In this document: positions 37,061 to 39,141 of the stretch, one piece after another | How positions within the stretch are numbered: position 1 is the stretch's first letter | How the letters are laid out: the number at the start of each line of letters is the position of its first letter | From: Candidatus Krumholzibacteriota bacterium | Lineage (GTDB): Bacteria; Krumholzibacteriota; Krumholzibacteriia; LZORAL124-64-63 | Assembly: GCA_024275485.1 (NCBI GenBank) | Contig: JAJRZA010000045.1 | Location: 1-64,000, forward strand | Direction of reading: 5' to 3' | DNA: 64,000 nucleotides | Notes under the pieces: generated by a model | Told to the model about the DNA's origin: nothing | Database searches by the model: none | Seen by the model: the letters and a program-made list of their open reading frames with translations, nothing else | Program-made: the position numbers and the translations under genes

Positions 37061-37076
37061 CTCCTCAGTTTAGGAG
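37061..37076 (+). promoter_or_regulatory. Hairpin covering the ribosome site of the selenoprotein gene
   Basis: CTCCT (37061-37065) can pair with the Shine-Dalgarno AGGAG (37072-37076) across a six-base loop. A second inverted repeat (GGGAA/TTCCC, 37043-37058) lies just upstream. This could dampen or regulate translation. Confidence 0.3.
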
Positions 37077-37084
37077 AATTTGAA

Positions 37085-39085
37085 ATGAAACCTCTGCACC
37101 GGATTCTCATCCTGATCCTTGTCCTGCTGACGGCCATTCCCGCCGTGGCGCAGGTGCCTCGTTCTGTTTTTGTCGAGATGGGCTCGGCCACCTGGTGATC
37201 ATACTGTCCGCGCGCTCGCGCAGGTCTTGCGGTCATGCACGATCATTACGACACCATCGAATTCGATTCCGTGGAATATATGGCCACCTCCGGTGGATTG
37301 AGTTGTCCCGACAGCGATGCCCGCATGGCGTATTACGGCAACAACGGCTTGCCGCACTTGCTTTTCAACGGTGGCGGCATGCTGGTGGGTGCCGGCACTG
37401 ATGTTATCGACGGCAGTGTGTACCACCCCATCGTTCAGAGCCTGTTGGCTGATGCCACACCGCTGAAAATGTCCATCAGCAGCTTTAGTTTTGACGGGCA
37501 AAATGCCCATGTAACTGTGGATCTGGAGCTCGAAGGTGATCTGGCCGATATCAGCCAGACCCGCCTGCGGGTGGCGGTGCTGGAAGATGACCTGATATAC
37601 AGCAGCGTTAACTACAACAATATCCTGCGCGATATGCTGCCGGATCAGGCCCTGACCATCAATACGGCCGGTCAAGCCCAACAGATCACCATCAATTTCT
37701 CCTCTGACCCCGGTTGGGATCCTACCAACATGCGTCTGATTGCCTTTGTGCAGGACGACAGCAACAAGGAAATTCTGCAGAGTTGCAATTCCCTGCCGGC
37801 TCCCGATTATTCCTTGCGTTATTACGTTCTGGGTGAAACCGTCCTGATCGGCAGCGGCCAGATTGCTTTCGATCAAAGCGCCCTTTTCAACACCGGCTCC
37901 ATGACCGACACCTACGACATCTCTCTGGATAACAGCAGCCTGCCTGCGGGGTGGAGTGCCTCGTTCTCCCATGGGGGCTCCGATTACACCAACCTGACTG
38001 TGACCCTGGACCCTGATGCGCGGGCGCTGTTCAACGTGACCGTCGATGCCGTTTCCGTCGGCGGTGGTGAAGTCGCCCTGACTCTGCACTCCCAGAGCGG
38101 ACAGACTCCCGACCGCACCATCACTTTCAAGGTCATCACCCCCGATGTCCAGGTCCTGTTGGTGGATGACGATGGGGGTGCCGGCTATGGCGCCCTGTAT
38201 TTTGAACCCGCTATTGCTTCGACCGGCAAATCGGCCGCCACCTGGAACCGCAGCTCCGCGGGTCTTTCAGCCGAGGTGCTCGCCAACTTCGACGCGGTTG
38301 TCTGGCAATGCGGCTGGGCTTTCCCCACCGTAGACGCCGATGACCGGGCAGCCCTGGCTGCCTATCTTGATGGCGGCGGTAACCTCTTCATCACCGGCCA
38401 GGATATAGGCTGGGAAATGTACGATAACGGCGGAGCCTCCGTGGTCTGGTACAACACCTACCTGCACGCCACCTACATTAGCGATGATACCAACCTGCTG
38501 AACCTGCAGGGTGTGCACGGTGACCCCATCACCGATGGGCTGATTCTCGGCATCTCCGGTGGCGATGGCGCCAACAACCAGCAGTATCCCAGCGACATCG
38601 ACCCTCGCGGGGACGGCGCCTCGACCATTCTGACCTACGATTCCTTTCGCAATGGTGCCATCAAGGCTGACTCCGGTGGGCACAAAGTCGTCTACCTGGC
38701 TTTTGGATTTGAGGCCATCAACAACGCGGCGGATCGAGAAGTTCTCATGCAGGGTATCATCGGCTGGTTGTTGCCTGGTGAGTCTGCGGTCCCCGGTGAT
38801 TTGCCCGGCGCCATTGCTCTGCTCGGCAACGTGCCCAATCCCTTCAACCCCCAAACTGATATTCATTTCAGTGTTAGCCGGGAAACCAACGTCAAGTTGG
38901 GTTTGTACGACGTGAAGGGACACCTGGTGCGCATGCTGGATGCCGGAGTTCTCACACCAGGCGATCACAGTGTGCTTTGGGACGGCAACGACCAGGTCGG
39001 CCGCGCCATGCCTTCAGGCACCTACTTCGCCCGTATCCTGGGCGAGGGGCAGTTGAAGGCGGTGAAGATGATGTTGGTGCGCTGA
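37085..39085 (+). CDS. Secreted thioredoxin-fold (Omp28-like) selenoprotein with type IX-style sorting domain
   Basis: Read through the TGA at 37196-37198, the gene encodes 666 residues in one unbroken frame. Residues 1-22 are a clear signal peptide ending AVA. A redox motif W37-U38-S39-Y40-C41-P42 follows, where the TGA sits exactly at the first Cys of the CxxC of Omp28/thioredoxin-like proteins. A Gly-Leu-Pro (about 78-80) suits the cis-Pro loop. Middle regions are beta-rich with LLVDDDGG near 355, found in many exported FCB proteins. The last 80 or so residues form a FlgD-like/type IX sorting domain (FNPQTDIHFSV, WDGNDQVGRAMPSGTYFAR). A SECIS-like hairpin follows the TGA. AGGAGA precedes the ATG. 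Conventional gene calling starts at 37235 and loses the signal and motif. A plain nonsense mutation is the alternative. Confidence 0.8.
37196..37245 (+). promoter_or_regulatory. Bacterial SECIS-like element after the in-frame TGA
   Basis: Starting at the TGA, the RNA can form a lower stem (TGATC 37196-37200 with GATCA 37241-37245) and an apical stem CGCA (37219-37222) / TGCG (37228-37231). The apical loop is GGTCT (37223-37227). The loop G lies 24 nt after the TGA. E. coli fdhF uses the same GCAGGTCT apex. The middle of the stem is imperfect. It would recruit SelB for selenocysteine insertion. Confidence 0.7.
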
Positions 39086-39111
39086 GTCCCAACCTCGCTG
39101 GATGAAAAAAA

Positions 39112-39141
39112 GCCCCGGAGTTGTTGAACTCCGGGGCTTTT
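39112..39141. terminator. Bidirectional rho-independent terminator
   Basis: A perfect 11-bp stem (GCCCCGGAGTT with AACTCCGGGGC) with a GTTG loop, preceded by an A-run and followed by TTTT, lies between the selenoprotein gene and the convergent NifU-like gene. Confidence 0.93.

What the first reader, a model, noticed from the sequence alone, without database searches (positions are those of the whole stretch)
37085..39085. Likely unannotated exported selenoprotein: TGA in place of the first Cys of a thioredoxin-type CxxC
The frame from ATG 37085 to stop 39085 is interrupted once, by TGA at 37196. Upstream is a perfect signal peptide, and downstream the thioredoxin-like text continues in the same frame. 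The TGA falls exactly between Trp37 and Ser-Tyr-Cys-Pro, giving W-U-S-Y-C-P where Omp28/thioredoxin-like proteins have W-C-x-x-C-P. A random nonsense mutation would rarely hit that codon, and selenoproteins typically place Sec at this redox position. A large secreted protein with a type IX-style sorting domain carrying UxxC is, as far as I know, not a commonly described selenoprotein class.
Basis: partly seen in the sequence, partly recalled or inferred. Interest (0 to 1): 0.92.

Follow-up and report, generated by a model that had tools for sequence, protein, structure and literature searches.

The report
Exported Omp28-type thioredoxin-like selenoprotein
An apparent stop codon in this gene is almost certainly read as the rare amino acid selenocysteine, giving a secreted thioredoxin-like protein that standard annotation would cut short; the kind of protein was already known, but this surface-protein branch appears unlabelled.

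Summary
ATG 37085 to TGA 39085 is one frame broken once, by TGA at 37196, where thioredoxin-like relatives have the first Cys of CxxC. It is not an error or a decaying gene: 64 distinct homologous copies, mostly Krumholzibacteriia, carry TGA at that codon with no other in-frame stop nearby, 10 others carry Cys, and the second Cys is kept in every TGA copy. The genome has selA, selB, selD and tRNA-Sec, and its own selD holds an in-frame TGA. All 44 genomes with a TGA copy have selA or tRNA-Sec. A stem-loop after the TGA fits the published bacterial SECIS model and covaries. A model of the domain matches P. gingivalis HBP35, a surface thioredoxin exported by the type IX system; the genome encodes SprA. 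Best reading: a selenocysteine-containing, surface-directed thiol-disulfide oxidoreductase of the Omp28/HBP35 kind. The kind is not new: NCBIfam NF045500 'Omp28-related selenoprotein' (GOS_C, 2008) is the nearest family. This protein scores far below its cut-off (63.8 against 200), so it is a divergent branch with a T9SS-type multidomain architecture. Selenium insertion and enzymatic function are inferred, not measured.

The parts
37085..39085 (+). Selenoprotein gene, 666 residues with Sec at 38, ending at TGA 39083-39085
   Evidence: Translation with TGA read through; orthologues conserved over the full length
37072..37076 (+). Shine-Dalgarno-like AGGAG before ATG 37085
   Evidence: Seen directly in the sequence
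37085..37150 (+). Signal-peptide-like segment, residues 1-22 (basic start, hydrophobic core, AVA before Gln)
   Evidence: Seen directly in the translation; no signal-peptide predictor was run
37148..37804 (+). Omp28/thioredoxin-like domain, residues 22-240
   Evidence: Pfam Omp28 35.1 bits (cut-off 34.9); AlphaFold model pLDDT 80.1, pTM 0.82; best PDB match HBP35 5y1a, E 1.9e-11, TM 0.78 by query length
37196..37198 (+). In-frame TGA read as selenocysteine (residue 38, first position of UxxC)
   Evidence: TGA in 64 distinct copies, Cys codon in the Cys-type relatives
37205..37207 (+). TGT, second Cys of the UxxC motif (residue 41)
   Evidence: Cys in 70 of 70 TGA matches
37223..37244 (+). Candidate bacterial SECIS stem-loop GGTCTTGCGGTCATGCACGATC, apical loop 33 nt after the TGA
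   Evidence: Fits the published bSECIS constraints (-8.4 kcal/mol); covariation over 20 relatives; more stable than synonymous recodings over the clade
37210..37221 (+). Short hairpin just upstream of the SECIS candidate, role unknown
   Evidence: Fold; 68.8% of cells paired over 20 relatives
37847..38140 (+). All-beta, probably Ig-like linker domain, residues about 255-352
   Evidence: Strands in a low-confidence full-length model
38147..38770 (+). Alpha/beta domain (LLVDDDGG ... GGGNLFITGQDIGW), residues 355-562, also found on other exported-type proteins
   Evidence: Alignment to WOR-3 and Wallbacteria proteins; low-confidence model
38834..39073 (+). C-terminal FlgD-Ig / type IX sorting-type domain, residues 584-663
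   Evidence: FlgD_ig 38.2 bits (cut-off 27); TIGR04183 23.4 bits (cut-off 23)
39110..39139 (+). Perfect inverted repeat ending in a short T-run, likely terminator
   Evidence: Seen directly in the sequence; not listed by the consensus scan

Best explanation
The gene encodes a selenoprotein. SelB and tRNA-Sec, guided by the stem-loop just 3' of the TGA, insert selenocysteine at residue 38 (shown: machinery, conserved TGA/Cys exchange, covarying stem-loop; inferred: actual insertion). The protein carries an Omp28/HBP35-type thioredoxin-like domain with a Sec-x-x-Cys active site, followed by Ig-like and alpha/beta modules and a type IX sorting-type tail. It is most likely exported through the Sec translocon and then the type IX system to the cell surface, where it acts as a thiol-disulfide (selenenylsulfide) oxidoreductase with Sec38 as attacking and Cys41 as resolving residue (inferred from fold and from HBP35; about 0.65 likely). 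It belongs to a divergent branch related to the catalogued Omp28-related selenoproteins and is spread through Krumholzibacteriia.
For: Own genome: selA 449.5 bits, selB 330.6 bits, tRNA-Sec 69.5 bits, selD 366.5 bits with one TGA inside, near its N-terminus. 64 distinct TGA copies and 10 Cys copies at one column; no other in-frame stops. All 44 genomes with a TGA copy have selA or tRNA-Sec; the two homologue-bearing genomes lacking both, G082 and G092, have no TGA copy among their homologues. Stem-loop: covariation score 0.299 against 0.184 shuffled, 0 of 500; slides at most 0.160; bSECIS constraints met by 19 of 20 clade members and 30 of 44 other Sec copies, against 70% and 33% of synonymous recodings, and by 2 of 10 Cys copies. 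Fold match to HBP35 and Omp28. SprA present, 481 bits. Purifying selection on both sides of the TGA.
Against: No protein-level evidence. In the window's own copy the wider fold is not more stable than shuffles (z -0.09), and recodings of this clade often pass the SECIS model too (70%), so the SECIS case rests on covariation and clade-wide statistics. Relatedness inflates the covariation controls. Redox activity and substrate are unknown; the T9SS tail match is marginal for TIGR04183, and of the type IX system only SprA was tested.
Confidence: 0.93

Rival explanations
1. Nonsense mutation or sequencing error in a gene whose functional form has Cys.
For: A single TGA in one genome could arise so; Cys homologues exist.
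Against: Same TGA in 64 distinct copies from many assemblies, no other decay, purifying selection on both sides.
Confidence: 0.01
2. TGA is a sense codon for another amino acid in this lineage, or a leaky stop read by a near-cognate tRNA.
For: The read-through frame is conserved.
Against: TGA ends 13 of 29 large ORFs in the window; complete Sec machinery; the site exchanges with Cys in all but two aberrant copies.
Confidence: 0.02
3. Two genes: a short signal-peptide ORF ending at the TGA and a separate 616-residue protein starting at ATG 37235.
For: ATG 37235 opens the downstream frame.
Against: The downstream start would lose the signal peptide and the active site; the residues between the TGA and ATG 37235 are conserved in frame.
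Confidence: 0.02
4. A selenoprotein, but not a surface redox enzyme: a metal-, heme- or selenium-binding surface protein that uses the Sec for binding.
For: HBP35 binds hemin as well as having thioredoxin activity (PMC2907840); Cys-type Omp28 genes sit beside selD and selA in two other genomes.
Against: UxxC in a thioredoxin-like fold is typical of redox catalysis; there is no binding evidence for this protein.
Confidence: 0.2

Closest known systems
Omp28-related selenoprotein NF045500 (hypothetical protein GOS_C; PMC2398784, PMC13188914 Table 1)
   Same: Omp28-like, thioredoxin-like fold, UxxC with Sec first, Cys homologues, SECIS-like element
   Different: This protein scores 63.8 bits against a cut-off of 200; none of 193 related genomes reaches the cut-off. 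No true member could be fetched for a direct comparison
HBP35 of Porphyromonas gingivalis (PDB 5y1a; PMC2907840, PMC3120885)
   Same: Best fold match of the N-terminal domain; thioredoxin activity with two active-site Cys; type IX export through a C-terminal domain
   Different: HBP35 has Cys, not Sec; 16% identity in the fold alignment; hemin binding not shown here
Omp28 lipoprotein family PF11551 / NF033782 (PDB 2r2c)
   Same: PF11551 just over its cut-off; fold match to 2r2c
   Different: NF033782 cut-off not reached (35.0 of 150); no lipobox Cys in the signal-peptide-like start
Selenocysteine-containing SelD
   Same: Same genome, in-frame TGA, an independent sign that Sec is used
   Different: Unrelated enzyme, not exported

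Membership tests
Bacterial selenoprotein | In-frame UGA conserved and replaced by Cys in homologues | tested here: met
   64 TGA and 10 Cys copies at the column
Bacterial selenoprotein | SelA, SelB, SelD and tRNA-Sec in the genome | tested here: met
   each over its curated cut-off
Bacterial selenoprotein | SECIS stem-loop just downstream of the UGA | tested here: met
   Published constraints met at -8.4 kcal/mol; covariation; the broader single-sequence fold is not unusual
Bacterial selenoprotein | Selenium in the protein | not testable with these tools
   Needs 75Se labelling or mass spectrometry
NF045500 Omp28-related selenoprotein (GOS_C) | Curated score cut-off of 200 bits | tested here: not met
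   63.8 bits
NF045500 Omp28-related selenoprotein (GOS_C) | UxxC in a thioredoxin-like domain | tested here: met
   family motif from PMC13188914
Omp28 PF11551 | Curated Pfam cut-off of 34.9 bits | tested here: met
   35.1 bits, marginal
Type IX secretion cargo | C-terminal sorting-type domain | tested here: met
   TIGR04183 23.4 bits against 23, marginal; Pfam Por_Secre_tail 15.8 against 27 not reached
Type IX secretion cargo | Type IX system in the genome | tested here: met
   SprA 481.3 bits summed; other components not tested
Type IX secretion cargo | Export to the surface | not testable with these tools
   Needs localisation experiments
HBP35-like surface thioredoxin | Fold of the thioredoxin-like plus beta domain | tested here: met
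   TM 0.78 by query length, E 1.9e-11
HBP35-like surface thioredoxin | Thioredoxin activity and hemin binding | not testable with these tools
   Needs assays

The most novel reading that the evidence does not exclude
Krumholzibacteriia and some other phyla display on their surface an expanded set of Sec-containing Omp28 thioredoxins, sometimes in tandem with Cys copies, that serve a dedicated extracellular role such as selenium or metal capture; the placing of Cys-type Omp28 genes beside selD and selA elsewhere would reflect the same link.
Probability: 0.1. Interest if true: 0.7.

Novelty: new variant of a known kind. Interest (0 to 1): 0.42.

Why it matters
Standard gene calling would lose the signal peptide and the active site of these proteins and annotate a truncated protein. 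The branch extends Omp28-related selenoproteins far below the present curated model, into multidomain proteins with type IX sorting-type tails, and shows several Sec/Cys exchanges that could be used to study why Sec is kept in an exported thioredoxin-like protein. It gives a concrete target for widening the NF045500 model.

Tried and rejected
Rfam on the window found nothing. A single-sequence fold of 71 nt around the TGA was no better than shuffles, which led to the comparative tests. One structure count failed on a wrong string length and was repeated. A search for true NF045500 members in the phylum of G106 found none, so the Sec motif of that family is taken from the literature only. The full-length structure model was poor (pLDDT 56.7); the N-terminal domain alone was good. 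No paper held couples Omp28 with selenoproteins, and the one paper naming Krumholzibacter with selenoproteins was not read. Rejected readings: error or pseudogene, reassigned code, two separate genes (see rivals).

Full report
Observation. The frame from ATG 37085 to TGA 39085 holds one internal stop, TGA at 37196-37198, codon 38, in the context W-U-S-Y-C-P. Upstream are an AGGAG and a signal-peptide-like segment; downstream of the final stop lies a perfect inverted repeat with a short T-run. The window lies on contig C28 of a 3.98 Mb, 96% complete assembly. Its nearest named relatives are Candidatus Krumholzibacteriia MAGs.

Conservation of the TGA. A six-frame search that reads through all stops, in 193 genomes, found relatives in 51. 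At the aligned codon 64 distinct copies have TGA, 11 a Cys codon (one of these, L067, is an alternative alignment of a TGA copy, leaving 10 in the tree), and two have other codons. None of the 64 has any other in-frame stop from 12 codons before to 200 after the TGA, and the residue three positions on is Cys in all 70 TGA matches. Close orthologues are under purifying selection before and after the TGA. TGA is a normal stop elsewhere in the window. These results exclude an error, a pseudogene and a reassigned code.

Machinery. The genome has selA, selB, tRNA-Sec and selD, each above the curated cut-off. The selD frame itself holds a TGA in the context KSAG-U-AAKLSPGD near its N-terminus, where selenoprotein SelDs are known to carry Sec (own knowledge). 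Of 44 genomes with a TGA copy, 42 have a selA match and the two without one (G006, G010) have tRNA-Sec. G082 and G092, which have neither, have no TGA copy among their homologues. Counting the Sec trait as present in 129 of 193 genomes, Fisher's exact p is 2e-9; shared ancestry makes this figure too optimistic.

SECIS. [quoted passage not shown] The window copy meets it at 37223-37244 with the loop GTCA 33 nt after the TGA. In 20 relatives of its clade the stem covaries: score 0.299, shuffles 0.184 with sd 0.020, none of 500 as high; slid controls 0.160 at most (the count includes the short upstream hairpin). Two registers of the inner stem occur among relatives. The stem region is more stable than synonymous recodings, mean z -1.83. 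Other Sec copies of the family, including the own-genome paralogue, mostly show a loop GGTC closed by a five-pair stem 17 nt after the TGA (25 of 30), much like the E. coli fdhF element (own knowledge). Cys copies mostly lack a fitting stem-loop (2 of 10).

Protein. Pfam gives Omp28 (35.1 bits) and FlgD_ig (38.2); NCBIfam gives TIGR04183 just over its cut-off and NF045500 'Omp28-related selenoprotein' at 63.8 of 200 bits. An AlphaFold model of residues 22-240 is good and its best PDB match is HBP35 of P. gingivalis, a protein with demonstrated thioredoxin activity that depends on its two active-site Cys (PMC2907840) and is exported through the type IX system (PMC3120885). The own genome encodes SprA. 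The middle modules are shared with other exported-type proteins. A second Omp28-type Sec gene lies on contig C17, with FG-GAP, UnbV_ASPIC and FlgD_ig domains. The gene follows the nuo cluster in close relatives as well, which says it is a stable resident but gives no functional hint.

Mechanism. Shown: conserved TGA/Cys exchange, complete machinery, covarying stem-loop, thioredoxin-like fold (as a model). Inferred: Sec insertion, export to the surface, and oxidoreductase chemistry with Sec38 attacking and Cys41 resolving. The substrate is unknown.

Novelty. The kind is known: GOS_C was described from ocean metagenomes in 2008 as a Trx-like fold with UxxC (PMC2398784) and is listed with NF045500 in a 2026 review (PMC13188914). 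No genome among 193 relatives reaches that model's cut-off, so this is a divergent branch that the model does not label. A tree of 76 copies needs at least 6 changes of the Sec label.

Noticed in passing
L060 1-6001 (own genome C17:36500-42500): A second Omp28-type selenoprotein gene with UPYCP, FG-GAP repeats, UnbV_ASPIC and a FlgD_ig tail; its SECIS-like loop GGTC lies 17 nt after the TGA.
   Followed up: partly
L102 (own genome C1:20138-21055): selD of the same genome has an in-frame TGA near its N-terminus (KSAG-U-AAKLSPGD).
   Followed up: partly
L056 2074-3750; L097 1-1755: Cys-type Omp28 genes lie directly beside selD in a Coatesbacteria contig and beside selA in G180.
   Followed up: partly
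L061 (G183:C186:33500-45500), L062, L080, L081: Tandem arrays of Omp28-type genes; in L061 and L062 Sec and Cys forms lie side by side; L061 and L079 also hold copies that have lost the residue.
   Followed up: no
L051 229-5307: A WOR-3 protein with gingipain-like text carries the same alpha/beta module as residues 355-562 of the window protein.
   Followed up: no
G182:C83:7374-8537: selA match interrupted by two TGA and one TAG in a genome that still has tRNA-Sec and a TGA-type Omp28 gene.
   Followed up: no
window 37210-37221: A second short hairpin between the TGA and the SECIS candidate, partly conserved in the clade.
   Followed up: partly
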